The position numbers and the translations under genes were made by a program. From Bacillus sp. sid0103 (GTDB lineage: Bacteria > Bacillota > Bacilli > Bacillales_B > DSM-18226), in assembly GCF_019219025.1 (NCBI RefSeq), contig NZ_JAHUWN010000039.1, positions 1-52,670 on the forward strand: a stretch of DNA of 52,670 bases. Reading direction: 5' to 3'. The notes below the pieces were generated by a model, which was not told where the DNA came from, did no database searches, and was given only the letters and a program-made list of their open reading frames with translations. Shown in pieces: positions 3,509 through 23,032 of this stretch (the first letter of the stretch is position 1; each line of letters opens with the position of its first letter).

Positions 3509-5521
3509 TTAATTGTTAAGTTCTTTAAAAGATTTAACAACATTGTCAACTGTGAAACCATACTTCTCTAGTAAAATACTTTCAGGTGCAGATGCACCAA
3601 ACTGATTAATGGCGATAACACGGCCGGCGTCTCCAATATATTCTCTCCAACCAATGGATGAACCCATTTCAATTGCAAGTCTTGCTTTCATATTCTTAGG
3701 CAGAATGGATTCTTTATATTCAAGTGATTGTTTTTCAAAGCGATCCCAACTTGGCATACTGACGACTGATACAAAAATCCCTTCACTTTCAAGCTCTTGT
3801 TGAGCAGCTATTGCTAAAGCTACTTCTGAACCTGTTGCAAGCAATAATCCACTAGCATCGCCTTTCGCTTCCGAAACAACATAAGCGCCTTTTTTAACAC
3901 CTTCATAAACCGTTTGCTGCCCAAGTGCTAGGGTTGGCAGGTCCTGACGTGTTAATACCAGTACGGTCGGAGTATCTGTGCTTTCCAATGCTAATCTCCA
4001 AGCAGCAACTGTCTCCTTCGCATCTGCAGGGCGAAGAATAGAAATTCCTGGCATTGCACGTAATGCAGCCAACTGCTCAACTGGTTCATGAGTAGGCCCG
4101 TCTTCGCCTACAGCGATGCTATCATGTGTAAAAACATAAGTAACTGGAAGCTTCATTAATGCTGCAAGTCGAATCGCTGGACGTAAATAGTCAGAGAATA
4201 CGAAGAAGGTTGAACCAAATACTTTCACACCACCATGTAGTGACATTCCATTTAGTGCAGCACCCATCGCGAATTCCCGAACTCCAAACCAAATATTGCG
4301 GTCTGCATAGCTATCAATATAGTAATTTTTTTCTGATGTAATAAGTGTTTTGTTCGATCCTGCTAAATCGGCAGACCCCCCAAGAAATTGTGGGACGACA
4401 TTAGCTACCGCATTCAGGGTTTTCCCTGATGATACACGAGTCGCGATTTTTTCACCTGCAGTAAAAGCTGGCAATACTTCTTCCCAATTTGCAGGAAGCT
4501 CTCCATTGATAGCAGCTTCAAATTGTGCAGCGAGTTCAGAGTATTCATTCTTGTAGCTCGTATATAATTCATTCCATGCATTTTCCTTGAGATGTCCATC
4601 TTGTGTAAATTGGTTAAAATGGTCTTTTACTTCTTCAGGAACGTAAAATGGCTCTTCATTGTTCCAATTATATGCAGCTTTTGTTAACTTAATTTCTTCT
4701 TTACCTAGTGGAGAGCCGTGAGATGCAGATTTTCCAGCTTTATTTGGAGAACCATAACCGATCACGGTTTTAACCTCAATTAAAGTAGGGCGATTCAAGT
4801 CTGCTTTTGCCTCTTGTAATGCTTTTTGAATCGCATCAGTGTCATTTCCATCTTCCACACGAATTACTTGCCAGCCATAAGCTTTAAATCTATCCTCCAC
4901 ACTTTCAGAGAAGGATAAATGTAAATCTCCATCCAATGATATGTCATTTGAATCATACATGACAATTAATCTACCAAGTTTAAGGTGGCCTGCCAGGGAT
5001 GCTGCTTCAGCAGATACACCTTCCATTAGGTCGCCGTCTCCACAAATACTATAAGTGTAATGATTAACGACGTCGTATCCTTCTTTGTTGTATGTAGCTG
5101 CAAGATGTCTTTCCGCCATTGCCATCCCCACAGCCATGGCAACCCCTTGTCCTAATGGCCCTGTCGTTGCTTCTACCCCAGGTGTGTGACCAAATTCAGG
5201 GTGACCAGGTGTTCTGCTTCCCCATTGACGGAAGTTTTTCAAATCATCAATAGTCACATCGTAACCAAATAAGTGCAATAAACTATATAAAAGCATTGAT
5301 CCATGTCCAGCTGATAAAACAAACCTGTCTCTGTTAAACCAATTCGGATTCAATGGGTTATGATTCATTTCTTTTGCCCAAAGCGTGTAAGCCATTGGTG
5401 CTGAACCCATAGGCATACCTGGATGTCCAGAGTTGGCCTTTTCGATCCCATCAATGGATAAAGTACGAATTGTATTAATTGCTAATTGATCAAGTTTTGT
5501 TTCATTTACTAATGTTTTCAT
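3509..5521 (-). CDS. tkt: transketolase
   Basis: A thiamine-diphosphate enzyme of the non-oxidative pentose phosphate pathway, moving two-carbon units between ketose and aldose phosphates. 670 aa, full length: N-terminal ThDP domain with [36 protein letters not shown] and the GDGDLMEGV diphosphate-binding motif; then the pyrimidine domain ([18 protein letters not shown]) and the C-terminal domain. I start at the ATG at 5521; an in-frame TTG 18 nt upstream overlaps the GGAG ribosome binding site. The gene begins 60 nt after larC2 with no terminator between, so it is probably the last gene of the Lar/gluconokinase operon. That suits a route delivering 6-phosphogluconate and ribulose 5-phosphate. 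Confidence 0.95.
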
Positions 5522-5581
5522 ATTTTTTTGACACTCCAAATCTATTAGAATTGTATGCTTCCTTACTATAGAGAGGGGTAC

Positions 5582-6070
5582 TTACTCTTTAGACTTCGTT
5601 CTCTCACTGCCCAAAGCCTTCCAAACCATTTCGTAAACCTTTTTCAAGGGAATGTTATGAAGTCGTGCAATGCTTTTGCATTCTTCAAATTCTGGAGCAC
5701 TTTGCACGACTTGTCCATTATAAATTCCTTCTTTTACGGTCACAGGACCCCACTCAGTTGGAACCTTCCTAAACATTCGTTCCAACCGATGTACCGTTAA
5801 GGGATAGTAACGGACCCCTAGTGTTGTGGTTTCCATAAAAAGAATTTCTTTAATTTTAGATACGTATTTCTGTGAACAAAGTAATTGAAGTAATACACCC
5901 GGTCTATTTTTTTTCATATAAATCGGTGAATAAAAAACATCATTTGCCCCAGCCTCAAAAAGCAGGTCCATTACATAGCCAAGCCATTCTCCAGGAATAT
6001 CATCAAGGTTAACCTCCATTTTGACCATTTGTTCATCGATATGTTCATGATTCGAAGGATGTAATACCAC
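5582..6070 (-). CDS. larC: LarC2: C-terminal part of the nickel-inserting enzyme of NPN cofactor synthesis
   Basis: Matches the C-terminal half of LarC, the CTP-dependent nickel insertase (pyridinium bisthiocarboxylate mononucleotide nickel chelatase) that finishes the nickel-pincer nucleotide. The domain opens with KMEVNLDDIPGEWLGYVMD and includes TTTLGVRYYP, both typical of this half. I choose the GTG at 6070 because GAAAGGAG lies about 7 nt upstream; an ATG at 6094 is possible but lacks a good site. 162 aa. It is out of frame with larC1 and separated from its stop by 73 nt. A TAA at 6116-6118 closes this frame before it reaches larC1, so the halves must be made as separate chains. Confidence 0.85.
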   Translation of the reverse strand: MVLHPSNHEHIDEQMVKMEVNLDDIPGEWLGYVMDLLFEAGANDVFYSPIYMKKNRPGVLLQLLCSQKYVSKIKEILFMETTTLGVRYYPLTVHRLERMFRKVPTEWGPVTVKEGIYNGQVVQSAPEFEECKSIARLHNIPLKKVYEMVWKALGSERTKSKE

Positions 6071-6143
6071 TAGAAAACTCCTTTCGTTCAGCATTTTTAC
6101 ATATGTGCAGGACCCTTACTACATTAAGAAACAGACAATAAGC

Positions 6144-7247
6144 TTATTCACCGATTATGACACGGAGTACATTGGGGTGGCTTTTAAACGTTTTTGTTCC
6201 TGCTCCGTAGCCAATTGAATTTACCTTTATTGAAGGAATGGTACCAAATTCCTCCGCAAGAACAGAGACGATCGCTGCACCTGTCGGTGTGGTTAACTCC
6301 GCTCTAATATCTGTCTGATCAATTGGTACACCTTTTAATATTTCTAAAGTGGCAGGTGCAGGGACAGGATAAATCCCATGATCTATATGAATACGGCCTG
6401 TTCCCACTGGGATAGGCGAGGATTTTATTACGTCTATCTCTAATTGATGAATTAAGATAGCTGTACCGATAATATCAATAATCGAATCTACCGCCCCTAC
6501 CTCATGAAAATGGACCTTCTCTAATGGAACTCCATGGATGTGTCCTTCCGCTTCACCAATTTTTTTAAAGATTTTTAATGCCATTTCTTTCACAGGTTCT
6601 GCAAAAACAGCATCCTCAATTAATTCAACAATGTCTTTATATGCTCGGTGGTGGTGATCATGGTCATGGTGATGATCATGATGATGATCATGATGATGGT
6701 GGTGTTCATGGTCGTGGTGTTGATCATCAGCATGATGGTGTTCATGGTCATGGTGATGATCATCGGCATGATGGTGTTCATGGTCATGATGGTGTTCATG
6801 GTCATGATGGTGTTCATGGTCATGATGGTGTTCATGGTCATGGTGATGATCATCGGCATGATGGTGTTCATGGTCATGATGGTGTTCATGGTCATGATGG
6901 TGTTCATGGTCATGATGGTGTTCATGGTCATGATGGTGTTCATGGTCATGGTGATGATCATGATGATGATCATGATGATGGTGGTGTTCATGGTCGTGGT
7001 GTTGATCATCAGCATGATGGTGATCATGACTATGCGAGTGATCATTGTTCACTAACACCACATCAAATTTTGTACTTGTAATCCCATTCTTCACTAGCTT
7101 TTTCCATGTCAGCGTATACTCATCATCTATATGAAGTTTTTTTAATTCTTCCACTAGCCGCTCGGGATCTGCCCCGGCATCGATAAGAGCTCCAATGACC
7201 ATATCGCCGCTGATACCTGAAAAACAATCAAAATAAAGTGTCTTCAA
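6144..7247 (-). CDS. larC: LarC1: N-terminal part of LarC with a giant histidine-rich insert
   Basis: N-terminal half of the LarC nickel insertase. MKTLYFDCFSGISGDM is the family start, and the region after residue 200 (EKVHFHEVGAVDSIIDI, PVPAPATLEIL, LTTPTGAAIV, NVLRVIIGE) is typical. Residues about 70-200 are almost wholly His, Asp and Glu (HDHEHHH units broken by ADDH/ADDQ), far longer than the short His stretch of ordinary LarC and plausibly a nickel store or delivery arm. The insert is encoded by 18-bp and larger DNA repeats. The start overlaps the larB stop by 4 nt (translational coupling). The protein ends at VIIGE, exactly where the two halves meet in one-piece LarC proteins. Confidence 0.9.
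   Translation of the reverse strand: MKTLYFDCFSGISGDMVIGALIDAGADPERLVEELKKLHIDDEYTLTWKKLVKNGITSTKFDVVLVNNDHSHSHDHHHADDQHHDHEHHHHHDHHHDHHHDHEHHHDHEHHHDHEHHHDHEHHHDHEHHHADDHHHDHEHHHDHEHHHDHEHHHDHEHHHADDHHHDHEHHHADDQHHDHEHHHHHDHHHDHHHDHDHHHRAYKDIVELIEDAVFAEPVKEMALKIFKKIGEAEGHIHGVPLEKVHFHEVGAVDSIIDIIGTAILIHQLEIDVIKSSPIPVGTGRIHIDHGIYPVPAPATLEILKGVPIDQTDIRAELTTPTGAAIVSVLAEEFGTIPSIKVNSIGYGAGTKTFKSHPNVLRVIIGE
6648..7035. repeat. expanded coding repeat for the LarC1 His-rich insert
   Basis: Built from an 18-bp unit (plus strand CATGGTCATGATGGTGTT) repeated many times, with interruptions containing GATGATCATCGGCATGATGG. An 82-bp block is present twice without a mismatch that I can find, at 6659-6740 and 6941-7022, flanking the simpler repeats. 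Nearly identical units point to recent slippage or unequal recombination. The repeat opens long frames in other phases, which I treat as artefacts. Confidence 0.9.
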
Positions 7248-8002: not shown

Positions 8003-8024
8003 TCGTTCCCCCCCTTATTTAGTT

Positions 8025-9604: not shown

Positions 9605-9647
9605 ATTTTTTTGTTTTTTCCTAAACAAAATTTTCAGAGGAGATAAC

Positions 9648-10539: not shown

Positions 10540-11310
10540 TTATATTGTCATGCTGCCAAAGCCGCCATCAACTCGAATGAGTGTTCCTGTTACGAAACTA
10601 GACGCTTTCTCAGAGGCAAGCCAAACAGTAGCACCTTGTAACTCTTCCGCCTCACCAAAACGATTCATTGGCGTATGTCTCATGATTGATTCAATTCGTT
10701 CTTTGTCTAAAATTTTTCGATTTTGTTCCGCAGGGAAAAATCCTGGAATAATTGCATTGACACGAATACCATTTGGAGCAAATTCACGTGCTAAAAATTG
10801 CGTAACGCTGTTAATGCCTGCTTTTGATACGGAATACGTAAACACTCTTGATAGTGGTGTTGTTGAAGAAACGGATGAGATATTAATGATGCTTCCTTTT
10901 CTTTCCTGATCAATCATTTTCTTCGCAAAAATCTGGCAGGTTAACACAATTCCTTTTAAGTTTATATCCATAATTTTGTCCCATTCTTCCATATCAAGTT
11001 CAAAAAATGGCGTAGCACTATTTGTACCTGGAGCATTTAAAAGAATGTCCCAGCCTCCGGACCATTGTTCAATTTCGTTCGCAACGTTCACTAAAGATTC
11101 CTTTGAACTAACATCTGCAGAAAATGCCTTAGCTTCTCCGCCACTCTCCTTAATTTCCTTGACAACTTCCTCTGCTTTTTCAAGATTACGTCCTACAATT
11201 GCCACTTTTGCACCGTGTGCTGCCAAGCCTTTTGCCATTGCTGATCCTAAGACACCATTTCCACCAATTGCAACTGCCACTTTGCCACCTAAATCAAATA
11301 ATTTCGACAT
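10540..11310 (-). CDS. uxuB: SDR oxidoreductase, probable D-mannonate oxidoreductase (fructuronate reductase)
   Basis: A classical short-chain dehydrogenase, 256 aa: GGNGVLGSAMAKG (cofactor loop), NAPGT, catalytic ISSVSS and YSVSK (Ser/Tyr/Lys), then the C-terminal stretch APNGIRVNAIIPGFF, AEQNRKIL, HTPMNRFGEAEEL, SSFVTGTLIRVDGGF. That last pattern is characteristic of the SDR-type fructuronate reductases of Bacilli (YjmF/UxuB), which interconvert D-fructuronate and D-mannonate with NAD(P)H. The start at 11310 has AGGGAGAGAAG upstream; earlier in-frame starts overlap the larA end. It lies 22 nt after the larA homologue. A gluconate 5-dehydrogenase is the alternative. Together with uxaC in the window the mannonate role is the more coherent one. 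Confidence 0.75.
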   Translation of the reverse strand: MSKLFDLGGKVAVAIGGNGVLGSAMAKGLAAHGAKVAIVGRNLEKAEEVVKEIKESGGEAKAFSADVSSKESLVNVANEIEQWSGGWDILLNAPGTNSATPFFELDMEEWDKIMDINLKGIVLTCQIFAKKMIDQERKGSIINISSVSSTTPLSRVFTYSVSKAGINSVTQFLAREFAPNGIRVNAIIPGFFPAEQNRKILDKERIESIMRHTPMNRFGEAEELQGATVWLASEKASSFVTGTLIRVDGGFGSMTI

Positions 11311-11332
11311 CTTTTCTTCTCTCCCTAATCTA

Positions 11333-12601
11333 TTAAAATAAATTTCCCTCTGCATTGAACGGAATATCATAAAGATCTGAACATTGTTCCATATTAGGAT
11401 GCTGTTTCACATATTCAAGTAAGGGCTCAGACACTTCAATTTCACTTAAAACTAAGGTATTTTTAATGCGGACTAATTTGACGTTTCTAAAATCTAAAAT
11501 ATTGCATGTTTTTATCGCAGCTTGGATAGCTTGTTTATCATTTGGTAAGGTCGTAGCAATTTTTGTAGGAGCAACAACGGTTGAAGTTAATCCATTTGCA
11601 TAAGTTCCTTCTTTATCCATCTTGTCTACCAACCGTTGTGTCGTAAAGTCTGCCGTTCCTACTCCATTGGCATTTCCCTCTGATTGATGAGTCACGTCGA
11701 GTACCACCATCTTGTTAACGTCAGGTCCACCAGATGCATATGGAGTGGGATATCGTCCTGTAATATTAGGATCCATTCCATCACCACTAATATTTTTGCC
11801 AATTTCATCTATAACGAGGACATCTAATTGGTCAAAGAATAGCTTAGGTAATAACTCTTTTGCCTTTTTTTGTAGTTCTGGTTCTTTATTAATAATCTCT
11901 TCCGGAGTAAGCACTTCAATAATAGCTACTTTATCAAATGCATTTTCAACTGTTGCAACCCCGAAAAGTACGGGTGTCTTTTCCATGATGATTTTCGCCA
12001 TGGCTGGAACATTTTCTGCCATATACTTAAAGCCCATTTGATGACAGGCTTCCGCGCCTTTTTGCTTCCCTAAGCCAATACTAATCATCTTCATCATTCC
12101 ACTTTCAACAGGTCCCCGAAAAGCTGTGTGTGGTTTCACACGATTAATCACAACGATTCCATCCGCTTCTGAAGCAAACTTATCCACATACACTGGTAAT
12201 CCATTTGGTAGTTCACTAATCTTCACTACCTCCATTGAAGATCGAATCTCGCAACCGACGCTTTCTTCGGTTACTCCAAGATGTGCTAAAACTTCACGTT
12301 GGCCCTCTGCAGTGGCACCCCCGTGACTACCCATGCTTGGTACAATGAAAGGTTTTGCACCCAAATCCTTTAAAAACTGTACGGTTACTTCGGTCATTTC
12401 AACAAGACGGTCGAGTCCCCTGCTGCCAACAGCAATTGCAATTTCCATTCCAGGCTGGATTTTTTTCTGAATATGTTCTTGCTGTAGTTGTCCTTTCAGG
12501 GTTGTACCAAGTTCATCTATTTTTTTGTTATCAAAGTTAACTTTGACTTTTGCCATTTTAGGAACTGGAATATCTTTTAATAAATCTTGTAGGATCCCCA
12601 T
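11333..12601 (-). CDS. LarA-family nickel-dependent 2-hydroxyacid racemase/epimerase, candidate D-gluconate 2-epimerase
   Basis: 422-aa homologue of lactate racemase LarA, which uses the covalently bound nickel-pincer nucleotide for hydride transfer at the alpha carbon. GSHGGAT (H93), RVKPHTAFRGPVESGMMKM (H158, K171) and ACHQMG (H187) fit the catalytic and cofactor positions; the K171-H187 spacing of 16 equals that of Lys184-His200 in L. plantarum LarA. It heads the cluster that also encodes the cofactor enzymes LarE, LarB and LarC. Published work on the LarA superfamily found malate, phenyllactate and hydroxyglutarate racemases and D-gluconate 2-epimerases. With a gluconokinase and a mannonate oxidoreductase as neighbours, D-mannonate/D-gluconate epimerisation is my best inference. 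RBS AAGGAG, ATG start. Confidence 0.85.
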   Translation of the reverse strand: MGILQDLLKDIPVPKMAKVKVNFDNKKIDELGTTLKGQLQQEHIQKKIQPGMEIAIAVGSRGLDRLVEMTEVTVQFLKDLGAKPFIVPSMGSHGGATAEGQREVLAHLGVTEESVGCEIRSSMEVVKISELPNGLPVYVDKFASEADGIVVINRVKPHTAFRGPVESGMMKMISIGLGKQKGAEACHQMGFKYMAENVPAMAKIIMEKTPVLFGVATVENAFDKVAIIEVLTPEEIINKEPELQKKAKELLPKLFFDQLDVLVIDEIGKNISGDGMDPNITGRYPTPYASGGPDVNKMVVLDVTHQSEGNANGVGTADFTTQRLVDKMDKEGTYANGLTSTVVAPTKIATTLPNDKQAIQAAIKTCNILDFRNVKLVRIKNTLVLSEIEVSEPLLEYVKQHPNMEQCSDLYDIPFNAEGNLF

Positions 12602-12921: not shown

Positions 12922-14091
12922 ATGCTCACAGGGGATGCCGCATTTATCAAAAAAATGAACAGATCGTTAATCTTAAGTAAAATTGTTGAGCATAAATTGA
13001 TATCTAGAGCTGAACTTGCAAAAATTACAGGATTAAATAAAGCAACGATCTCTGTACAGGTATCAGAGTTATTGGACAAAGAAATCATTACTGAAACACA
13101 ACAGGAACACAAAAGTTTAGGAAGAAGGCCCATTATGCTCTCAGTTAACCGTAAGGCAGGTTTTGTCCTGGGAATTGACCTAGATAAACATTCCATTACA
13201 TTTGCCCTATCAGATTTAATCGGTACTTCTGTCCAGAACGAAATAATTAAACTGCATGTATCTGATTATGATGGTATTTTGAAGTTATTAATCGAAAAGA
13301 TAAAAGGTTATAAATGTAAATACGCACATACTCATTATGGTCTGGTGGGAATTGCGATTGGAATACATGGTATCGTGAATAAAGATGAATTGATTGATTT
13401 TGTTCCTCAACACGGCTGGCATAACAAAACCTTAAAAAAAGACTTAGAAGCTGAAATTGGAGTCAATGTTTACATCGAAAATAACGCGAACTTATGTTCT
13501 GTAGCAGAAAATGTGTACAAGCACCACCAAAGTACAAACTTATTATCTGTCAGTTTGTATTCTGGAATTGGCCTTGGCTTCATCATCAACGGTGCATTAT
13601 TCAAAGGATATCACGGTTATGCGGGTGAAATCGGGCATATGATTGTCGTTCCAAATGGAATACCGTGCAGCTGTGGAAATTTAGGATGTTGGGAACAATA
13701 TGCTTCTGAATCGAGTTTTTTTACCAAATTGGCTGTGAATCAAAGAGAACTTGGTGACAACTTTGAAGACTGCCATCATCTCTTCAATGAGCAGAATCCT
13801 ATTTTCATCAAAGAGATGGATCAATTTATTCTGTTTCTTTCTATTGGACTTAATAATTTAATTAACCTTTATAATCCTGAAATTATTGTAGTAAATAGTG
13901 AAATTCTTCGTTTATATCCAAATGCTGCTGAAAAACTTAAAGCCCATCTCAATTCTTCCATTAGCCATTATTCTGAACTGTTTATTTCAGAATTTGGCAA
14001 AAAGGCATGTATTATGGGAGCTTGTGCTTTGGCAATTCAAAACTTTCTAGGGGTTTCAGAGTTATGTTTAACTGCAAGCGAAGATGTGTAA
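12922..14091 (+). CDS. ROK-family (XylR/NagC-type) transcriptional regulator 1
   Basis: 389 aa. The N-terminal winged HTH (about residues 15-65: SRAELAKITGLNKATISVQV) is followed by a ROK sugar-kinase-like sensor domain: GIDLDKHSITFAL, GIAIGIHGIV, ENNANLCSVAE, GYAGEIGHM and the zinc motif CSCGNLGCWE. Repressors of this type release DNA on binding a sugar or sugar acid. It is transcribed divergently from the larA operon, with a matching palindrome over that operon's start site, so it probably represses it. It is a close paralogue of the ROK gene at 23302; both proteins begin with a TGDAA(F/Y)IKK(M/I)NRSLI pattern. Start: AAGGAGG, 6 nt before ATG. Confidence 0.9.
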   Translation: MLTGDAAFIKKMNRSLILSKIVEHKLISRAELAKITGLNKATISVQVSELLDKEIITETQQEHKSLGRRPIMLSVNRKAGFVLGIDLDKHSITFALSDLIGTSVQNEIIKLHVSDYDGILKLLIEKIKGYKCKYAHTHYGLVGIAIGIHGIVNKDELIDFVPQHGWHNKTLKKDLEAEIGVNVYIENNANLCSVAENVYKHHQSTNLLSVSLYSGIGLGFIINGALFKGYHGYAGEIGHMIVVPNGIPCSCGNLGCWEQYASESSFFTKLAVNQRELGDNFEDCHHLFNEQNPIFIKEMDQFILFLSIGLNNLINLYNPEIIVVNSEILRLYPNAAEKLKAHLNSSISHYSELFISEFGKKACIMGACALAIQNFLGVSELCLTASEDV

Positions 14092-14292: not shown

Positions 14293-15153
14293 TTAAAACC
14301 AATCGTTAAATCCTAATTTTCTCAAGTGATTTGCTGAAATTTCTAGACATTCGAATGGGTCGCGTCCATAGGTATCATCTTGTTCAACCAAGAAATACTG
14401 TGCACCACTTTCCAACCCTGCTTCCATAATCGCTTTGATATCAAGGTTTCCTTCCCCAAGTTCCGCAAATTCAATTGTATTCGTAAAGACTTGCATGAAT
14501 TTAGATATATCGCTAAAGTCTAATTCACTTATATCCATCTGTCCGATGCGGTAATCTTTTAGGTGCAGTAAAGAAATACGGCCAGCGTAATTTTTTACAA
14601 ACTCGACCGGATTGACACCTGCTCTTTGAATCCAGTGTACATCTAACTCAAAACCGAGTTTAGTGGTGTTATTTTTAATAATATCTAATAAATATTCACC
14701 ATCATATTTTTGGAACTCGAGGTGATGTGTATGATAATACAATTCAATTCCATACTCTGCTAATCTATGAGCCATTTCTTCTGCCTTTTTAATAAAATCC
14801 ATGATTTTATCTTTATGACCCATACAAGTTAGAGGCAGCATTCCAATACGTAAGAAATTACAGTCAAGTGTCTTACAATCCTTAACAATTTTGTCAAAAT
14901 CATTCGTTAAAGTCTCGCCAGGTGCACCAGGCAGCATGGGTTCTAAAGCAGCGGACATCGCAGCAATTTTGATGTCAAAGTCGACACTCGCTTTTCTTAA
15001 ATCAGCTACATTTTCAGCTGTCATTGGAATTTGGGAAACCTCTACTGCATGATATCCAAGTTCCTGAATTCTTCTCATTGTTTCATAGGCACCAAGCTCA
15101 TCCACTTTACCTTTAAGCATCATCATTTGAACGCCGATTTTTCCTTTATTCAC
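14293..15153 (-). CDS. TIM-barrel sugar isomerase/epimerase-like protein (AP endonuclease 2 family), A
   Basis: 286 aa, xylose-isomerase-like TIM barrel. Metal-site motifs: YYHTHHLEF, LGFELDVHWIQRAG, RISLLHLKDY and EFAELGEGNLD, with a late YFLVEQDD. Family members isomerise or epimerise sugars or act on 3-keto-glycosides; the substrate cannot be read from sequence. The GTG start has GGAGGGG upstream and lies only 3 nt after the preceding oxidoreductase stop, so the pair is translationally coupled. The same pairing (oxidoreductase plus TIM barrel) recurs next door at 16329-18379, which suggests a two-step oxidise-then-rearrange chemistry. Confidence 0.85.
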   Translation of the reverse strand: MNKGKIGVQMMMLKGKVDELGAYETMRRIQELGYHAVEVSQIPMTAENVADLRKASVDFDIKIAAMSAALEPMLPGAPGETLTNDFDKIVKDCKTLDCNFLRIGMLPLTCMGHKDKIMDFIKKAEEMAHRLAEYGIELYYHTHHLEFQKYDGEYLLDIIKNNTTKLGFELDVHWIQRAGVNPVEFVKNYAGRISLLHLKDYRIGQMDISELDFSDISKFMQVFTNTIEFAELGEGNLDIKAIMEAGLESGAQYFLVEQDDTYGRDPFECLEISANHLRKLGFNDWF

Positions 15154-15156
15154 TTG

Positions 15157-16161
15157 TTACCCCTCCATAATAATTTTTTGTCTAGTTTCTGAAGAATGCC
15201 GGATTGCATCGATCATTTTGATTGATGTCAGCGCTTCCTGAACATGAACATAATTTTCAGTATTATTTACAATACAATCATAGAATTGATTAATTAATTT
15301 TACATGGCTTGCGCCGTAATAGAATTTAGTTCCAGGAAGTTTGGCATCTTCCATCAATGGTTCCTTCTTGCCGTTTTCATTTCCAAACGTTAACACGCTA
15401 TCCTTGATCGTAAATCTCCCCAGTTCAAGAACAACCTGAAGTTCTACACTAGAGTTTTCTGCATTTGCATTCGTGGCAAAAAATAACCCTTTTGTTCCGT
15501 TTCTAAACTGGATATTGGCTGTTGCTGTGTCTTCCACTTCAATGTCGTAATCCAACAGCTGGTCTATCGTACCTCTTATCGATTCAATTTCACCGCCGAG
15601 CAGTTGCATCAAATCCAATGTATGGAGTGCTTGATTAATCATTACACCTCCGCCAGCATATTCTAATTTGCCCCTCCACGGCTTAACGTCGTAGTACTCT
15701 TTCGGTCTAAACCAGGTGACTAATCCTTTTATACCAATCATTTTTCCATAGCGGCCGCTGTTCACAATTTCTTGAAGCAATTCAAAGGACTCATTATAAC
15801 GATTTTGAAAGCATACACAGATTTTAATATTCTTGTGCTCCTCCTCTAACCTTGCCAGAGCTAGTCCTTCTTTTGTATCCAATGCCAATGGTTTCTCTTG
15901 AAAAACATGGATACCCTTTTCTACACAAGCCTTCGTGACGGGGTAATGTAGATAATGCGGCAAACAAACGTGGACACAATCTAATGATTCTTTTTCGAGC
16001 ATGACAAGATAATCGGTATAAAAATTTACATCTGGTACGGAAATATTTAAATTTTCATCTATATCACAGACCGCCACCAACTTGGCATAAGGATTTGCTT
16101 GGATAGCTGGGATATGGATTTTTGAGATATCTCCAAGTCCAATAACTGCAACTTTAAGCAT
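15157..16161 (-). CDS. Gfo/Idh/MocA-family NAD(P)-dependent oxidoreductase A
   Basis: 334 aa. N-terminal Rossmann fold (VAVIGLGDISKIHIPAI), the EKPLALD motif with the catalytic-region lysine, then a C-terminal alpha/beta domain with GGGVMINQALHTLDLMQLLGG. Members oxidise sugars, inositols or glycosides, often at C3. I start at the ATG at 16161: AAGGAG lies 9 nt upstream, whereas the longer reading frame has no such site. A 12-bp stem-loop at 16180-16214 immediately precedes the ribosome binding site. It is coupled to TIM-barrel A (3 nt gap). Confidence 0.88.
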   Translation of the reverse strand: MLKVAVIGLGDISKIHIPAIQANPYAKLVAVCDIDENLNISVPDVNFYTDYLVMLEKESLDCVHVCLPHYLHYPVTKACVEKGIHVFQEKPLALDTKEGLALARLEEEHKNIKICVCFQNRYNESFELLQEIVNSGRYGKMIGIKGLVTWFRPKEYYDVKPWRGKLEYAGGGVMINQALHTLDLMQLLGGEIESIRGTIDQLLDYDIEVEDTATANIQFRNGTKGLFFATNANAENSSVELQVVLELGRFTIKDSVLTFGNENGKKEPLMEDAKLPGTKFYYGASHVKLINQFYDCIVNNTENYVHVQEALTSIKMIDAIRHSSETRQKIIMEG

Positions 16162-16179
16162 AAGGCATAACTCCTTGGC

Positions 16180-16214
16180 AAACGAACTCATGCATGACTG
16201 CGATGAGTTCGTTT
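16180..16214 (-). other. 12-bp stem-loop in the 5' leader of oxidoreductase A
   Basis: AAACGAACTCAT and ATGAGTTCGTTT are exact inverted repeats around an 11-nt loop, ending 3 nt before the ribosome binding site (16171-16176). It may be an mRNA stability element or a protein-binding site. There is no following T run in gene direction, so it is not a terminator for the gene upstream. Confidence 0.7.
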
Positions 16215-16241
16215 AATAGATTAATATTTTATATTTAATAA

Positions 16242-16317
16242 GCTGTGTTAAAGGACATTTGTTGATTTTCTAACTAAGTAGATTGGAGCTCAAATCAACA
16301 TGCAAGAATAACACAGC
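16242..16317. repeat. dispersed hairpin-repeat copy B, possible terminator of oxidoreductase B
   Basis: Nested inverted repeats: outer GCTGTGTTA with TAACACAGC, inner TGTTGATTT with AAATCAACA, enclosing GATTGGAGCT. It shares the GATTGGAGCT...AAATCAACA block with 12861-12901. It starts 11 nt past the stop of the gene at 16329 on the minus strand. Confidence 0.65.
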
Positions 16318-16328
16318 CTTTTTATAAG

Positions 16329-17489
16329 TTATTGGGGTACAATTTCCTTCTTTTCTTCCTCAATCTTTTTGTTTAATTCTTCTAAGAAAAGATCTTCGTC
16401 AAATGGTACCTCTACTTCTTTGCCAAGCCAGCTAGAAAGATGGATCGCGTTTGCCAATCTAACTCCATGGATTCCATCGCTGCCAGGTGCCAATAATGGA
16501 GTTCCTTCTACGATTGCAGAAGCGAAGTTTTCCATTACAGCAATATGCTGTCCGCCCCAAACACTTCCGAACTCCAACACTTCTTCACTGAAAATATCAG
16601 ATGGATTACCACCCATGAAAATCCTCATTACATCCTGCATATCCATTTTAGAACTCATTTCATTTTCAGGTGTAACAAGTCGTTTAATTGTTACTTTTTT
16701 GCTATCGTCGACAACGATCTTACCTTTATCGCCTAAAATTTCAAAACGGTCCGTTCCAACAACGTCATGTGTACAAGTCACAAATACACCAGTTGCGCCA
16801 TTGCCATAATCAAGCATTGCAGTTACTTCATCTTCTACTGCGATATCACGTTGATAGCCGTACTTGACATTGGAATAAACCTTTTTAGGCATTCCGCAAA
16901 TCCACTGAAGTAAATCAAGTTGATGCGGTGCCTGGTTTACAAGGACACCACCACCTTCACCGCCCCATGTTGCTCTCCATGCACTGGAATCATAATAACC
17001 CTGTGGTCTCCACCAGGTTGTAATAATCCAGTTAGTACGACGAATGTTACCAATTTCTCCGTTATCAATAATTTCTTTCACTTTTTGATAAAGTGGATTT
17101 GTTCTTTGGTTGAACATAATTCCAAACGTTAACTCAGGCTTTGTTGCAGCATATTCGTTTAATTCTCTAACTTGTTTTGTATAAACACCCGCTGGCTTTT
17201 CAACCAATGCATGAATATTTCTCTTTAACGCTTCAATTCCCATTTCTGGGTGCAAGTAGTGGGGGACACATGTAACAATTGCATCAACATCTCCGCTTTC
17301 AAGCATTTCAATATAGTTATCATAAAAAGGAGTGTCCGGATATTTATCTGCTGCCAATTTCTTTTTATCTGGATCGGTGTCACAAATGGCACCCATCACC
17401 ATATTTTTTACTTTTCCTTCAGCTAAAAATCCTGCATAAGCTCCACCTTGCTGACCCAATCCAATGATGCCAAGTCTTACAGTTTTCAT
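16329..17489 (-). CDS. Gfo/Idh/MocA-family NAD(P)-dependent oxidoreductase B
   Basis: 386 aa. Rossmann motif LGIIGLGQQGGAYAGF, EKPAGVYTKQV, FGIMFNQRTNP, then WWRPQGYYDSSAWRATW and GEGGGVLVNQAPHQLDLL. This last pattern belongs to a large bacterial subgroup that acts on glycosides and sugar derivatives, in which C-glycoside 3-oxidases such as DgpA are found as far as I recall. I start at 17489 (second ATG) since GAGGAG is 8 nt upstream; the ATG at 17495 is too close to it. TIM-barrel B ends 2 nt earlier (TGA at 17492-17494), showing tight coupling. It diverges from oxidoreductase A, so the two are not a recent tandem duplicate. Confidence 0.88.
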   Translation of the reverse strand: MKTVRLGIIGLGQQGGAYAGFLAEGKVKNMVMGAICDTDPDKKKLAADKYPDTPFYDNYIEMLESGDVDAIVTCVPHYLHPEMGIEALKRNIHALVEKPAGVYTKQVRELNEYAATKPELTFGIMFNQRTNPLYQKVKEIIDNGEIGNIRRTNWIITTWWRPQGYYDSSAWRATWGGEGGGVLVNQAPHQLDLLQWICGMPKKVYSNVKYGYQRDIAVEDEVTAMLDYGNGATGVFVTCTHDVVGTDRFEILGDKGKIVVDDSKKVTIKRLVTPENEMSSKMDMQDVMRIFMGGNPSDIFSEEVLEFGSVWGGQHIAVMENFASAIVEGTPLLAPGSDGIHGVRLANAIHLSSWLGKEVEVPFDEDLFLEELNKKIEEEKKEIVPQ

Positions 17490-17491
17490 TA

Positions 17492-18379
17492 TCATTTCTC
17501 CTCACTTTCTATTTTTCTTAGTATTTCTTTAAGTGCCTCGTATTGAAGCTTATAGCCACCAGCACCATCTAGCCCCTTGTTGTCCTTTATAACCATTGCT
17601 GCATCCTCAAGCTCTAAATCCTTTAATGAATCAAAGAGAACGAGGTGTGGCTCGAGGGTTAAAAAACCTTTGTAGCCGCTGTTGATTACTTGTGTGAGGA
17701 TTTCAGGTATTTTTCCTTCTCCCGTGCCACAAACAACGTTTTGACTTTCTGATGTTACGGCATCCTTAATGTGTATATATACAATCTCCTCCTTAAGGAG
17801 ATTGAAACACTCCTGGGTATCTTCACCGCACTGCACAAAGTTAGCAAAATCAAAAATAGCCTTAAAGTGCGGAGAGCTAACCTCTTTTAAAATCTCATGA
17901 CATCTTCTCGCAATATCTCCATAGATGTCCTTTTCATTTTCATGCAGTAAAATAACATCATATTTTTCGGCAATCTCTGCAAACTCTTTTAATTTGCTAA
18001 TGACTTCCACTTTATATCGGTCTGCATCTTCACCCTTTGGAATATAAAAGCTGAATATCCTGATATATTTACAATCTAATAAGTTAGCAATCTGACAAAG
18101 CGTGTCCAACATATTCTTTTGATTGACAAACCCATCTTCATCGTTAATGAATACCTTGCCAATTGGAGAACCGATGGAAGAAACTCCGATACTAGCTTGC
18201 TGAAGTCGTGGTTTTACATTGTCTTTTATTTCTTCTAAAGTAAAATCGCCGATATTTTTCCCATCAATACCTCGTAAGGAAATGTAACGCATTCCTAATT
18301 TCGCTACAACTTCCAGCTGTGTATCAAAATCAGATGAGATTTCATCGGAAAATCCTGATATCAATAAGTCATTATTCAC
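17492..18379 (-). CDS. TIM-barrel sugar isomerase/epimerase-like protein (AP endonuclease 2 family), B
   Basis: 295 aa. LLHENEKDIYGD, HFKAIFDFANFVQCG, YIHIKDAV and GFLTLEPHLV supply the conserved metal-binding Glu/Asp/His set of the xylose-isomerase-like fold. GTG start with GGAGGA about 10 nt upstream. It is the first gene of a likely operon with oxidoreductase B and possibly the A pair, and is divergent from the AraC regulator at 18625. A cre site lies about 95 nt upstream. The substrate is unknown; isomerase, epimerase or lyase action on an oxidised sugar is possible. Confidence 0.83.
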   Translation of the reverse strand: MNNDLLISGFSDEISSDFDTQLEVVAKLGMRYISLRGIDGKNIGDFTLEEIKDNVKPRLQQASIGVSSIGSPIGKVFINDEDGFVNQKNMLDTLCQIANLLDCKYIRIFSFYIPKGEDADRYKVEVISKLKEFAEIAEKYDVILLHENEKDIYGDIARRCHEILKEVSSPHFKAIFDFANFVQCGEDTQECFNLLKEEIVYIHIKDAVTSESQNVVCGTGEGKIPEILTQVINSGYKGFLTLEPHLVLFDSLKDLELEDAAMVIKDNKGLDGAGGYKLQYEALKEILRKIESEEK

Positions 18380-18471
18380 TAGAGACTGTTCCTCCTTTTT
18401 CTATAGGTCGCCAACAGACGTTTTACATCAGCTATTAATCATCATCTTGATGCTTATGCTCTAATCTTAAT

Positions 18472-18485
18472 TGAAAACGTTTTTT
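18472..18485. promoter_or_regulatory. candidate cre site (CcpA) between TIM-barrel B and the AraC regulator
   Basis: TGAAAACGTTTTTT, 13 of 14 to the TGNAANCGNTNNCA outline on one arm, with a weaker right end. It lies in the divergent promoter region 18380-18624. Confidence 0.5.
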
Positions 18486-18624
18486 TGGACTCGTAATATT
18501 TTGCGAATAATAGTAAAATATTAATAATAATTAAAAATATTGCTCTTAATTGATAGTGCTGATTCATAAACAGAGCAAAATTATTTTATAAGCCTCATGA
18601 CAACTTTTATCAGGAAGTGTTAGT

Positions 18625-19884: not shown

Positions 19885-19917
19885 TACTATTTCTGTATGA
19901 TCAATAGTATAAAAAAA

Positions 19918-19955
19918 GGCTGTCTCAAGAGTGATTTTTCACTTTTGAGACAGCC
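19918..19955. terminator. bidirectional terminator between the araC-type gene and gnd
   Basis: 16-bp stem, GGCTGTCTCAAGAGTG with CACTTTTGAGACAGCC (one G-U), preceded by A7 and followed by CTTTA. Confidence 0.85.
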
Positions 19956-19992
19956 CTTTAGTTATGCTTCATTTTAGAGGAGTTTGATATTG

Positions 19993-21405
19993 TTATTCCA
20001 TCCAGTTTGTATGGAAAACTCCTTCTTTATCCACACGTTGATAGGTGTGAGCACCAAAGTAGTCACGTTGTGCTTGCAACAAATTGGCTGGAAGTGTTTC
20101 TGTACGGTAACTATCATAATAAGCAATTGCACTAGCAAATGATGGTACCGGAATACCGCGTTCAATCGCAACTGCAAGGACTTGACGTAATGCATTCTGA
20201 TAGTTCTCAACAATTTCTTTAAAGTATGGATCTAACAGCAAGTTTGCTAATTCTGGATCACGATCGTATGCATCTTTGATTTTTTGAAGGAATTGAGCAC
20301 GAATGATACAGCCGCCACGGAAAATCATCGCAATATCGCCATATCGAAGATTCCAATCGTACTCTTCAGATGCCACACGCATTTGAGCAAAACCTTGTGC
20401 ATATGAACAAATTTTGCTCATATATAGGGCTTTACGAACCGCTTCAATTAAATCTTCTTTACTTCCTTCAAATGGCTTAACTTCTGGTCCATTTAATACC
20501 TTACTCGCTTTAACACGCTCATCCTTCATCGCAGAAATAAAACGTGCAAAAACAGATTCCGTAATAATTGGAAGTGGAACACCTAAATCTAAAGCATTTT
20601 GGCTTGTCCATTTACCTGTTCCCTTTTGTCCCGCTGTATCTAGAATTAAATCTACCATTGGTTTGCCAGTTTCTTCGTCAACTTTGGTAAAAATATCGGC
20701 AGTGATTTCAATTAAGTAACTGTCTAATTCACCTTTATTCCATTCAGAAAAGACATTATGAAGCTCCTGGGCATCTAAACCAAGGATATTTTTCAAAATA
20801 AAATATGCCTCTGAAATTAATTGCATATCCCCATATTCGATTCCATTATGGACCATTTTCACATAATGACCTGCACCGTTTGGACCAATGTAGGTACAGC
20901 ATGGGTCGCCTTCAACTTTAGCAGATATTGCTTCTAAGATTGGCTTAACAAGATCATATGCTTCTTTTTTTCCACCTGGCATGATGGAAGGCCCTTTTAA
21001 TGCTCCCTCTTCTCCACCGGAAACGCCAGTGCCAATAAAGTGATAGCCAGCTGTTTCTAATTCTTTATTCCGTCTAATTGTGTCTTGGAAGAAGGTATTT
21101 CCTCCATCAATCAGAATATCGCCTTCTTCAAGATATGGTTTTAGAGATTCAATGGTAGCATCCGTTGCTGTTCCCGCTTTAACCATTAATAAAATTTTTC
21201 GTGGCTTTTCTAAGGAATTTACAAATTCCTCAACGGTATGGGCACCAACAAAATTTTTACCTTCTGCTTCATTTTTTAAAAACGCTTCTGTTTTGTCATA
21301 TGAACGATTAAAAACAGCGACAGAATAACCGCGGCTCTCGATATTTAGGGCAAGATTTTTACCCATAACGGCTAAACCAATTACACCAATTTGTTGTTTA
21401 GACAT
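19993..21405 (-). CDS. gnd: 6-phosphogluconate dehydrogenase, decarboxylating
   Basis: Oxidises 6-phosphogluconate to ribulose 5-phosphate and CO2. 470 aa, full length for the long form: [20 protein letters not shown] (cofactor site), [39 protein letters not shown] (substrate site), [15 protein letters not shown], and the C-terminal [11 protein letters not shown] and HTNW. AGAGGG ribosome binding site before the ATG. It stands alone, with a terminator on its 3' side, and links the gluconokinase product to transketolase, the last gene of the Lar cluster. Confidence 0.95.
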
Positions 21406-21625
21406 ACTATCCCTCTTTCATAATTAATACTATTTAGATAACCATAATTCTTTCATTAATACAATAAAAGTGCTTTTTTCTTGTAATTAAATCAGGAATT
21501 TCATTCCAGCTCGACACTAATTATACACATCAATAGTTTTACCATCCACTGTTAGTATTATATTTAATGTGTATAAGTACGCATTTTTTCTGCTCTTAAT
21601 CAAAGTTGATTTTTTAAAGTATTAA

Positions 21626-23032
21626 TTATCGCTCTAAGAAAAAACGTTCCGCATTATTAAAGCAGATATTTCGTACCATTTGCTCCATTTGCTTCATGTC
21701 ATTCGGTGCCAAACCTTTTTCAACCCAATCGCCAAGGATGTTACATAGAATTCGACGGAAGTAATCGTGACGTGCATATGATAAGAAGCTGCGTGAATCT
21801 GTCAACATGCCGATAAAATGACTAAGTATGCCAACATTTGCAAAATCCTTCATCTGCTTTTCCATTCCATCGATATGGTCAACAAACCACCATCCTGAAC
21901 CGAATTGAACCTTTCCAGGGACACCTTCTTCATAGAAGTTCCCCATCATTCCAGCTAATGTAACATTATCTTTTTCGTTCAAGTTAAATAATACCGTTCT
22001 TGGCAGTGCATTTTCTTGATCTAAGGAATCAAGGAATCGGGATAAGCCTTCAGTCATATTAGCTTCTCCTACAGAATCAAAGCCCGCATCCGTTCCAAGT
22101 AGTTCTTTCATCCTTGTGTTGTTGTTTCTCATTGCTCCCATATGGAGCTGCATGACCCATTGTTTTTCAGCATACATCTTTCCAAGTTCTTTAAGAAGGA
22201 AAATTCGATAAGCCACCAATTCATCATTGGTAAGTTGTTCTCCGTTCAAACGTTTATTAAAAATTGCTTCAACCTCTTGTTTGGTTGTTTCCACATATTC
22301 CATTTTTTGAATATCATGGTCAGAAGCACGTCCCCCATTTTCGTGGAAATAGTCAATTCGTTGTTTTATTGCGGCTAAAAACCCATCTAAAGAATCTGTT
22401 TTAATGCCTGAAACATCCGCCAATTGTTCAATCCAGTTTGTAAATGTTGGACGTTCAATAAACATCGCACCATCGGGACGGAAGGTTGGAGCAATCATCG
22501 TTTTAAAGGATTCATCATTTCTCAATAATTGATGGTATTCAAGTGTGGAAATGGGATCATCTGTTGTTCCAATAAACTTCACATTTGACCTTTCAATTAA
22601 GCCCCTTGCACTGAATTCAGGCAACTGCAATTTTTTATTACATTCTTCCCAAATTTCACGAGCTGTTTCTGGACTTAATAATTTATCAATCCCGAAGAAC
22701 ATTTTTAATTCTAAGTGTGTCCAGTGATATACAGGGTTTCCGATTAAATAAGGAACTGTTTCTGCATAAGCGGCAAATTTTTCCCAATCATCAGCATCAC
22801 CTGTAATATAACGCTCGCTAATCCCATGCATGCGCATTGTCCTCCACTTATAATGGTCACCCCCAAGCCAAATCTGAGTAATATTTTCATATGACTTATT
22901 TTCCCATACTTCTTGTGGATTCAAATGACAGTGGAAGTCAAAAATCGGTGACTCCGCAGCAGCCTTTTCATATAGTTTTATTGCAGTGTCTGTATTTAAT
23001 AAAAAGTACTGATCCATAAAGCTTTTCATCAT
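21626..23032 (-). CDS. uxaC: glucuronate isomerase (uronate isomerase)
   Basis: Interconverts D-glucuronate and D-fructuronate (also galacturonate and tagaturonate). 468 aa, the usual size. FDFHCHLNPQEVWENK is the amidohydrolase-like metal-binding N-terminus; FIGTTDDP, MQLHMGAMRNNN, LNEKDNVTLAGMMGNF and GMLTDSRSFLSYARHDYFRR are typical. I start at the first of two ATGs after AAAGGAG (23032; 23029 is equally possible); longer readings start before the ribosome binding site. It is divergent from ROK regulator 2 and has its own promoter with a ROK palindrome and a CCC box. No mannonate dehydratase or KDG kinase/aldolase gene accompanies it in the window. Confidence 0.93.
   Translation of the reverse strand: MMKSFMDQYFLLNTDTAIKLYEKAAAESPIFDFHCHLNPQEVWENKSYENITQIWLGGDHYKWRTMRMHGISERYITGDADDWEKFAAYAETVPYLIGNPVYHWTHLELKMFFGIDKLLSPETAREIWEECNKKLQLPEFSARGLIERSNVKFIGTTDDPISTLEYHQLLRNDESFKTMIAPTFRPDGAMFIERPTFTNWIEQLADVSGIKTDSLDGFLAAIKQRIDYFHENGGRASDHDIQKMEYVETTKQEVEAIFNKRLNGEQLTNDELVAYRIFLLKELGKMYAEKQWVMQLHMGAMRNNNTRMKELLGTDAGFDSVGEANMTEGLSRFLDSLDQENALPRTVLFNLNEKDNVTLAGMMGNFYEEGVPGKVQFGSGWWFVDHIDGMEKQMKDFANVGILSHFIGMLTDSRSFLSYARHDYFRRILCNILGDWVEKGLAPNDMKQMEQMVRNICFNNAERFFLER

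What the first reader, a model, noticed from the sequence alone, without database searches (positions are those of the whole stretch)
3509..23032. Possible nickel-dependent, UxuA-independent route from glucuronate to the pentose phosphate pathway
Seen: one cluster holds a LarA homologue, a fructuronate-reductase-type SDR, gluconokinase, all NPN-cofactor genes (larE, larB, larC1/2) and tkt; gnd and uxaC lie nearby. Known: UxaC makes fructuronate, UxuB-type SDRs make D-mannonate, and some LarA homologues are D-gluconate 2-epimerases. Inferred: glucuronate - fructuronate - mannonate - gluconate - 6-phosphogluconate - ribulose 5-phosphate, so mannonate dehydratase and KDG would not be needed. None of their genes is in the window. 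The cofactor genes would then exist for sugar-acid rather than lactate metabolism.
Basis: partly seen in the sequence, partly recalled or inferred. Interest (0 to 1): 0.85.

Follow-up and report, generated by a model that had tools for sequence, protein, structure and literature searches.

The report
Nickel-dependent glucuronate route in Bacillaceae
This Bacillus-family gene set most likely feeds glucuronic acid into central sugar metabolism through a nickel enzyme of an untested kind that turns D-mannonate into D-gluconate, a route known in outline from another bacterium but built here with a different enzyme.

Summary
The genes are present as described. The window resembles Neobacillus (Bacillaceae); its own genome is not held. 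The LarA homologue (11333-12601) belongs to 'group 22' of the nickel-pincer isomerases. I found no paper giving this group a substrate, and the protein is no closer to Thermotoga D-gluconate 2-epimerase than to lactate or malate racemases.

Comparative evidence favours the proposed route for its clade (A). Beside larAH, uxuB is found in 53 and gntK in 46 of 57 loci. UxaC is in 28 of 28 sampled clade-A genomes, against 76 of 320 others. Full-length UxuA is missing in 16 of the 28. One XylR-like operator precedes larAH, uxaC and both glucuronide-type symporters (4 exact sites, none expected). A glucuronide-3-dehydrogenase module lies between uxaC and larAH.

The pathway idea is not new: it was proposed for T. 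maritima in 2012, and GntE activity was shown in 2020. New here are the non-orthologous group-22 enzyme, its glucuronide regulon, its occurrence without UxuA in many Bacillales, and sister clades beside tetronate-type and aldarate-type genes. No enzyme was assayed; the substrate, the kinase's identity and the direction of flux are inferred.

The parts
11333..12601 (-). larAH: group-22 LarA homologue, predicted D-mannonate/D-gluconate 2-epimerase
10540..11370 (-). UxuB-type SDR, predicted D-fructuronate reductase (D-mannonate oxidoreductase); likely start at Met-21
   Evidence: NF006132 294 against 281 bits
9648..10451 (-). larE, NPN cofactor sulfur transferase
   Evidence: TIGR00268 366 bits
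8025..9497 (-). FGGY kinase, probable gluconokinase
   Evidence: TIGR01314 480 bits, below cut-off 648.55; 3gbt 'Gluconate kinase' 310 bits
7244..8002 (-). larB
   Evidence: NF033503 314 bits
6144..7247 (-). larC1
   Evidence: TIGR00299 221 bits; PF01969 profile positions 1-234
5582..6094 (-). larC2, separate frame
   Evidence: NF052512 145 bits; PF01969 profile positions 235-375
3509..5539 (-). tkt, transketolase
   Evidence: TIGR00232 953 bits
12736..12763 (+). XylR-like operator between larAH and the divergent ROK gene
   Evidence: exact pattern match, 0 expected
12922..14091 (+). ROK-family regulator 1
   Evidence: PF00480 with winged HTH; Mlc 147 and NagC 142 bits, below cut-offs
14293..15153 (-). 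TIM-barrel protein of the C3-oxidation module
   Evidence: PF01261; distant matches to 8bvk, 8tct, 8tcs, 8tcd
15157..16191 (-). Gfo/Idh/MocA protein 1 of the module
   Evidence: PF01408; 3q2i 123 and 8tdi 122 bits
16329..17495 (-). Gfo/Idh/MocA protein 2, glucuronide-3-dehydrogenase relative
   Evidence: 8tdi P2B11 506 bits, E 6.7e-151
17492..18379 (-). second TIM-barrel protein of the module
   Evidence: PF01261; no solved relative at E 1e-5
19993..21405 (-). gnd, NADP-dependent 6-phosphogluconate dehydrogenase
   Evidence: NF006765 791 bits
21626..23074 (-). uxaC, glucuronate isomerase
   Evidence: NF002794 640 bits
23142..23169 (+). XylR-like operator between uxaC and the divergent ROK gene 2
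   Evidence: exact pattern match
23302..24495 (+). ROK-family regulator 2
   Evidence: PF00480 with winged HTH
24554..25951 (-). GPH symporter 1
   Evidence: TIGR00792 482 bits, over cut-off; glucuronide transporter PRK09848 382 bits, below cut-off 528
26037..26064 (+). XylR-like operator upstream of symporter 1
   Evidence: exact pattern match
26192..27601 (-). GPH symporter 2
   Evidence: TIGR00792 369 bits
27741..27768 (+). XylR-like operator upstream of symporter 2
   Evidence: exact pattern match

Best explanation
The window holds a glucuronide-degradation regulon. GPH symporters import the substrate, and a C3-oxidation module (glucuronide-3-dehydrogenase relative, second Gfo/Idh/MocA protein, two TIM-barrel proteins) probably releases D-glucuronate. 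UxaC makes D-fructuronate and the UxuB-type SDR makes D-mannonate. The group-22 LarA homologue then inverts C2 of D-mannonate to give D-gluconate, by proton-coupled hydride transfer to the nickel-pincer cofactor that LarB, LarE and LarC of the same operon make. The FGGY kinase makes 6-phosphogluconate, Gnd makes ribulose 5-phosphate, Tkt carries on. Mannonate dehydratase and KDG are bypassed. Shown by computation: gene families, operon conservation, co-occurrence with UxaC, frequent lack of UxuA, a shared operator, the LarA fold and invariant cofactor-site motifs. Inferred: every substrate, above all that of the LarA homologue, the kinase's identity, and the direction of flux.
For: Clade-A loci (57 besides the window): uxuB in 53, gntK 46, larE 44, larB 43, uxaC 27, gnd 26, each at set identity thresholds; none of uxuB, gntK, gnd, uxaC in 19 clade-B and 33 clade-C loci. 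uxaC lies under 260 bases upstream of larAH on the same strand in 10 genomes and within 20 kb in 19 of 63. UxaC in 28 of 28 clade-A genomes against 76 of 320 others and in 31 of 32 of the genomes. Full UxuA missing in 16 of 28 and 23 of 32. Of 36 clade-A genomes without full UxuA, none has ManD over cut-off, and 9 have no KDPG aldolase over cut-off. Four exact operators, 0 expected; sites in 46 of 58 clade-A loci, 1 of 19 B, 1 of 33 C. Glucuronide-3-dehydrogenase relative. LarA fold.
Against: No group-22 member has been assayed, as far as I found. The residues after the second histidine differ from the published GntE signature (PMC11770544). The kinase is under its gluconokinase cut-off. UxuA is kept in 12 of 28 and 9 of 32 clade-A genomes. 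KDPG aldolase is over cut-off in 27 of 32. Two UxuA-less genomes carry ManD relatives at 412 and 394 bits, below the 550 cut-off. The co-occurrence tests are not corrected for ancestry. The basal clade-A locus L032 has no uxuB in the fetched stretch and its genome no UxaC. The window's own genome is unknown.
Confidence: 0.72

Rival explanations
1. Kinase first: the FGGY enzyme phosphorylates D-mannonate and the LarA homologue is a 6-phosphomannonate 2-epimerase, as two activities found in extracts of Lactobacillus suebicus (genes unidentified) would allow.
For: Those activities and the same overall conversion are reported in PMC6978723 (abstract and passages). The kinase is below the gluconokinase cut-off. 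The gene content is the same for both orders.
Against: Of the kinase's families the best is gluconokinase and the best solved relative is named gluconate kinase. The GntE enzymes assayed act on unphosphorylated mannonate (PMC7583248, passages).
Confidence: 0.1
2. The LarA homologue epimerises another sugar acid met in glucuronide use (another hexonate, or an acid freed from the aglycone side), while mannonate leaves by another route.
For: Group 22 has clades beside aldarate-type and tetronate-type genes, so the group can change substrate. PMC7583248 suspects a different native substrate for GntE1, whose KM for mannonate is very high.
Against: In clade A the gene stands between uxaC and uxuB in several Bacillaceae, with gntK and gnd. 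Nine UxuA-less genomes also lack KDPG aldolase over cut-off, leaving no other known exit for mannonate.
Confidence: 0.1
3. Side branch: where UxuA exists the KDG route carries the flux and the LarA branch only supplies or drains gluconate, or tops up NADPH and pentose phosphates.
For: UxuA is kept in 12 of 28 sampled clade-A genomes. T. maritima has both a gntE operon and a kdgAK-uxuBA operon under one regulator (PMC3750489, passages).
Against: 16 of 28 lack full UxuA, as do 6 of the 7 genomes whose LarA homologue is 93% or more identical to the window's.
Confidence: 0.06
4. Ordinary lactate or malate racemase placed by chance in a sugar cluster.
For: Many public records name it 'lactate racemase domain-containing protein'.
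Against: Malate-racemase models score 28 and 20 bits against cut-offs of 500 and 462, and the lactate-racemase model is not listed, while group 22 scores 569. A true LarA (NF033504, 552 bits) from one of these genomes looks quite different. The context is conserved.
Confidence: 0.01

Closest known systems
GntE route of Thermotoga maritima (gnd-uxaRED-gntEK; proposed by Rodionova 2012, GntE2 assayed in PMC7583248)
   Same: Mannonate to gluconate by an NPN-dependent LarA homologue, then gluconokinase and Gnd into the pentose phosphate pathway; genes co-regulated with hexuronate genes.
   Different: There the operon serves pectin/galacturonate and UxaR is GntR-type, with kdgAK-uxuBA in the same regulon (PMC3750489). 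Here the LarA homologue is of another group (13% identity to 4nar), the inferred substrate is glucuronide/glucuronate, the operator is XylR-like, the cofactor genes are in the operon, and UxuA is often absent.
LarA-superfamily D-gluconate 2-epimerases GntE1, GntE2 and LarAH15 (groups 18-20 and relatives)
   Same: Same fold, same invariant cofactor-site motifs, same reaction if the prediction holds.
   Different: NCBIfam group 22, no specific similarity to GntE2, and different residues after the second histidine.
Lactobacillus suebicus galacturonate pathway (mannonate kinase and 6-phosphomannonate 2-epimerase, PMC6978723)
   Same: Joins the upper isomerase pathway to 6-phosphogluconate without KDG, redox-neutral.
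   Different: Phosphorylation before epimerisation; genes unknown; galacturonate instead of glucuronate.
C3-oxidation glycoside cleavage: levoglucosan pathway LgdA/B1/B2/C of Bacillus smithii (PMC7676230, abstract) and P2B11 glucuronide-3-dehydrogenase (8tdi)
   Same: A set of four enzymes begins with C3 dehydrogenation; one window protein is a close relative of 8tdi (506 bits).
   Different: In the window the module sits in a glucuronate regulon; its chemistry was not tested.

Membership tests
LarA (nickel-pincer nucleotide) superfamily | LarA two-domain fold | tested here: met
LarA (nickel-pincer nucleotide) superfamily | Two catalytic histidines and cofactor residues (R75, H108, H174, K184, H200 of LarA) | tested here: inconclusive
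   R61, H93, H158, K171, H187 invariant in 66 group-22 sequences and matching by motif order; hhalign aligns only the two histidine regions, probability 55%; not superposed residue by residue
LarA (nickel-pincer nucleotide) superfamily | Bound NPN cofactor | not testable with these tools
   larB, larC1, larC2 and larE are in the same operon
NPN isomerase group 22 (NF052515) | Curated score cut-off | tested here: met
   569 against 400 bits
GntE-type D-gluconate 2-epimerases (groups 18-20) | Signature E, V at the positions after the second catalytic histidine | tested here: not met
   T and A in 62 of 62 clade-A rows; signature from PMC11770544 section 6. The alignment of this loop to LarA is uncertain
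GntE-type D-gluconate 2-epimerases (groups 18-20) | Closer to GntE2 than to other LarA homologues | tested here: not met
GntE-type D-gluconate 2-epimerases (groups 18-20) | D-mannonate/D-gluconate 2-epimerase activity | not testable with these tools
   needs assay
SDR D-mannonate oxidoreductase (NF006132) | Curated score cut-off | tested here: met
   294 against 281 bits; SDRs beside uxuA in L034 and L036 are 45% and 42% identical to it
Gluconokinase, FGGY type (TIGR01314) | Curated score cut-off | tested here: not met
   480 against 648.55 bits, though best of all FGGY models listed
UxuA-independent hexuronate route (GntE-type pathway) | UxaC, fructuronate reductase, epimerase, kinase and Gnd encoded together | tested here: met
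   all in the window; kinase identity uncertain
UxuA-independent hexuronate route (GntE-type pathway) | No mannonate dehydratase in the genome | tested here: inconclusive
   window genome not held; full UxuA missing in 23 of 32 and 16 of 28 relatives; ManD over cut-off in 0 of 36
Glucuronide-3-dehydrogenase (P2B11, 8tdi) | Full-length sequence similarity | tested here: met
   506 bits over residues 3-383; next chain 115 bits
XylR-type ROK operator | Match to the B. subtilis xyl operator TTAGTTTGTTTGGGCAACAAACTAA | tested here: met
   The larAH site read on the minus strand differs from it at 3 of 25 bases by eye; operator from PMC12034463 passage

The most novel reading that the evidence does not exclude
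Group 22 of the LarA superfamily is a family of sugar-acid 2-epimerases whose clades are each wired to one pathway. Clade A (this window) interconverts D-mannonate and D-gluconate, an independent origin of gluconate 2-epimerase that stands in for UxuA/KDG in many Bacillales. Clade C, beside D-threonate-kinase-like and PdxA-like genes, interconverts C4 epimers such as D-threonate and D-erythronate. Clade B, beside dihydroxy-acid-dehydratase-like and galactarate-dehydratase-like genes and an alpha-ketoglutaric semialdehyde-type dehydrogenase, acts on aldarates or pentonates. Nickel would then be a routine cofactor of sugar-acid catabolism in Bacillales.
Probability: 0.5. Interest if true: 0.74.

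Novelty: new variant of a known kind. Interest (0 to 1): 0.62.

Why it matters
It gives an uncharacterised and widespread nickel-pincer enzyme group a specific, testable substrate and ties it to a complete glucuronide pathway with its own operator. If true, the mannonate-to-gluconate step has arisen in a LarA lineage apparently separate from GntE, and many Bacillales use glucuronate without KDG by a redox-neutral route that depends on nickel. The sister clades turn an unknown group into further concrete predictions, and records now named 'lactate racemase domain-containing protein' would need renaming.

Tried and rejected
The window's own genome could not be searched. Rodionova 2012 (PMC4505799) is not held, so it is cited only through other papers. 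PDB sequence searches did not place the protein: the single sequence gave 2yjg at E 0.25, and the group-22 profile gave 30 sequences, none a LarA (TAL effectors, PDZ proteins and one other). The fold comparison settled superfamily membership instead. hhalign against classical LarA homologues of the same genomes gave only 55% probability. Lactate or malate racemase was rejected. ManD as a hidden replacement for UxuA was tested and not found over cut-off in 36 genomes (the model passes its cut-off in 2 of 14 control genomes); in an earlier look at 18 enolase-superfamily proteins from 7 genomes none passed either. My ORF picker chose antisense frames over uxuB in L003, L005, L006 and L072; tblastn counts replaced it.

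Rows left out of counts: fragments and weak matches were dropped. UxuA: 11 of 104 genomes with a match (G032, G067, G088, G124, G125, G157, G244, G267, G293, G304, G314). UxaC: 5 of 109 (G052, G144, G172, G202, G247). Counting the broken UxuA of G293 and G314 would raise the non-A figure from 58 to 60 of 76. Four loci fetched twice (L068, L069, L072, L076) are dropped but included. One broken group-22 copy (G290) was not fetched or placed in a clade; its genome counts among the 320 'others' and has no full-length UxaC. Clades were first set by identity to the window, then found on the tree, so the tree test is not independent of the labels. The tree was the quick method and warns of long branches in clade C. 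A paper for the P2B11 enzyme was sought and not found. Paper searches found nothing on group 22 or on a threonate 2-epimerase.
Full report
WHAT IS THERE. The window resembles Neobacillus: its LarA homologue is 93-94% identical to copies in seven genomes named Neobacillus or Bacillus. No whole genome is held for it. All genes of the finding are present at the stated coordinates: tkt, larC2, larC1, larB, an FGGY kinase, larE, an SDR and larAH in one run on the minus strand, with gnd and uxaC further on. The SDR passes the curated cut-off of D-mannonate oxidoreductase (294 against 281 bits). The kinase's best family is gluconokinase, but under its cut-off (480 against 648.55), so that name is a best guess. 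Among the main window ORFs scanned, no mannonate dehydratase, KDPG aldolase or PfkB-type kinase was listed.

GROUP 22 HAS CLADES WITH DIFFERENT NEIGHBOURS. Of 348 genomes of the order, 63 carry 81 copies over cut-off. I fetched 80 of them and added the 33 loci. Split by identity to the window (60% or more, 50-60%, under 50%), the three sets each form one side of a branch (support 100, 99, 96). Clade A: of 57 distinct loci besides the window, uxuB is in 53, gntK in 46, larE in 44, larB in 43, uxaC in 27 and gnd in 26. At the same thresholds none of uxuB, gntK, gnd or uxaC is in the 19 clade-B or 33 clade-C loci. Within six genes of larAH, clade B has a dihydroxy-acid-dehydratase-like protein (18 of 19), TRAP transporter genes (17), a KdgR-like IclR regulator (17), a galactarate-dehydratase-like protein (12) and an alpha-ketoglutaric-semialdehyde-type dehydrogenase (10). 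Clade C has a sigma-54 regulator (20 of 33), a D-threonate-kinase-like protein (19) and a PdxA-like protein (19). One representative of each was named by family search; most are below the cut-off of the specific family named, PdxA itself being over its own. So these names are likenesses. The basal clade-A locus L032 (63% identity) has dehydratase and TRAP neighbours, no uxuB in the stretch, and its genome has no UxaC, so the function of clade A probably begins above that branch.

CO-OCCURRENCE. All 28 clade-A genomes among the 348 have full-length UxaC, against 76 of the 320 others (Fisher 1e-16); genomes with B but not A have it in 3 of 14, with C only in 3 of 20. In the set of 32 genomes behind the loci, UxaC is in 31 (four genomes are in both sets). 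uxaC lies within 20 kb of larAH in 19 of the 63 genomes, and under 260 bases upstream on the same strand in 10. Full UxuA is missing in 23 of the 32 (21 with no match, 2 with a match of about 65 bits). In the 28 it is missing in 16, against 18 of 76 other UxaC genomes (p 0.002). None of these tests is corrected for shared ancestry. Of 36 clade-A genomes without full UxuA, none has the enolase-type mannonate dehydratase over its cut-off, although two have relatives at 412 and 394 bits. Nine of the 36 (G010, G014, G016, G017, G025, G182, G300, G371, G278) also have no KDPG aldolase over cut-off; G025 and G278 are small assemblies (2.1 and 2.9 Mb). In these the textbook KDG route seems unavailable, unless an aldolase of another family serves. 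Against this, 27 of the 32 have a KDPG aldolase over cut-off. Of the seven genomes with LarA homologues 93% or more identical to the window's (G001-G006, G024), six lack UxuA.

ONE REGULON. The intergenic regions share an inverted repeat. The pattern TTAATTWGTTTANNRAACWAANNAATTA occurs exactly four times in the window: before larAH and ROK gene 1 (12736), before uxaC and ROK gene 2 (23142) and before each GPH symporter (26037, 27741). None occurred in 100 dinucleotide shuffles. On the minus strand the larAH site differs at 3 of 25 bases, by eye, from the XylR operator of Bacillus subtilis printed in PMC12034463 (passage); XylR is a ROK-family repressor (recalled). Because the pattern was drawn from these four sites, the independent test is the other loci. 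With up to four mismatches it is in 46 of 58 distinct clade-A loci (window included), near the start of larAH in 29, uxaC in 21, gnd in 9 and a symporter in 5, and in 1 of 19 B and 1 of 33 C loci. gnd in the window has no site directly before it.

WHERE THE GLUCURONATE COMES FROM. Between gnd/uxaC and larAH lie two Gfo/Idh/MocA and two TIM-barrel genes. One Gfo protein matches the solved 'P2B11 Glucuronide-3-dehydrogenase' (8tdi) at 506 bits, the next chain at 115. The set resembles the oxidation-elimination-hydration-reduction cassette that turns levoglucosan into glucose in Bacillus smithii (PMC7676230, abstract). The 3-dehydrogenase relative is in 19 of 57 clade-A loci and in no B or C locus. 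The pathway therefore probably starts from glucuronides cleaved without a classical glycosidase; this step is inferred. The second TIM-barrel protein found no solved relative at E 1e-5.

HOW IT LIKELY WORKS. Glucuronide to glucuronate (C3-oxidation module), to fructuronate (UxaC), to mannonate (SDR), to gluconate (LarA homologue with the cofactor made by LarB, LarE and LarC), to 6-phosphogluconate (kinase), to ribulose 5-phosphate and CO2 (Gnd), then Tkt. D-mannonate and D-gluconate are C2 epimers, and the UxaC and UxuB reactions are established knowledge. The reduction of fructuronate and the oxidation by Gnd balance, a feature stated for the L. suebicus route (PMC6978723, abstract). In 11 of 32 genomes the group-22 copy is the only Lar_N match, so there the cofactor genes appear to exist for this enzyme. 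The order of kinase and epimerase cannot be settled from sequence.

WHAT WAS KNOWN. Rodionova et al. 2012 proposed epimerisation of mannonate to gluconate, then gluconokinase and Gnd, for T. maritima (paper not seen; reported in passages of PMC6978723 and PMC7583248). The T. maritima operon holds gnd-uxaRED-gntEK, with kdgAK-uxuBA under the same UxaR (PMC3750489, passages). GntE1 and GntE2 convert D-mannonate to D-gluconate (PMC7583248, passages); LarAH15 from an oomycete and LarAH10 also do (PMC11770544, passages). Thus the pathway concept is not new. I found no paper giving group 22 a function (searches; a library of open-licence papers only).

VERDICT. The boldest extension is that the clades of group 22 are 2-epimerases for C6 aldonates, aldarates or pentonates, and C4 tetronates.

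Noticed in passing
window 14293-18379: A TIM-barrel/Gfo/Gfo/TIM-barrel set with a close relative of P2B11 glucuronide-3-dehydrogenase (8tdi, 506 bits): a probable glycosidase-free glucuronide cleavage module.
   Followed up: partly
window 12736, 23142, 26037, 27741: Four XylR-like operators before larAH, uxaC and two symporters, beside two ROK genes.
   Followed up: yes
window 5582-7247: LarC is encoded as two separate frames split at PF01969 position 234/235. The larC2 frame has a stop (6118-6116) downstream of the larC1 stop (6146-6144), so no frameshift fusion is possible there, and a GTG at 6070 follows an AAAGGAG (read).
   Followed up: partly
L077, L090, L101, L105, L109, L121 and other clade-C loci: Group-22 LarA homologues next to D-threonate-kinase-like and PdxA-like genes and a TRAP transporter: possible tetronate 2-epimerases.
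   Followed up: partly
L058, L082, L084, L085, L093 and other clade-B loci: Group-22 LarA homologues beside dihydroxy-acid-dehydratase-like, galactarate-dehydratase-like and alpha-ketoglutaric-semialdehyde-type dehydrogenase genes: possible aldarate or pentonate 2-epimerases.
   Followed up: partly
L140 (and similar frames in L138, L142-L145, L147): A lactate racemase (NF033504, 552 bits) lies next to a KdgT-like permease (TIGR00793, 160 bits, below cut-off) (L140; the others by eye).
   Followed up: no
L032 (genome G031, Clostridia MAG): Ten Lar_N matches in one 2.7 Mb genome; its clade-A-like copy has dehydratase and TRAP neighbours and the genome has no UxaC.
   Followed up: no
window 32302-38076: SIS-domain, GntR/UTRA regulator, glucosamine-isomerase-type, amidohydrolase and PTS EIIC-B-A genes: looks like an amino-sugar utilisation cluster.
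   Followed up: no
window 49947-50768: A small (273 aa) ATP-dependent DNA ligase-like protein (PF01068).
   Followed up: no
control genome Haloferax volcanii: The group-22 family model is over its cut-off in this archaeon, for which larBCE-type genes have been pointed out (PMC8305020, passages).
   Followed up: no
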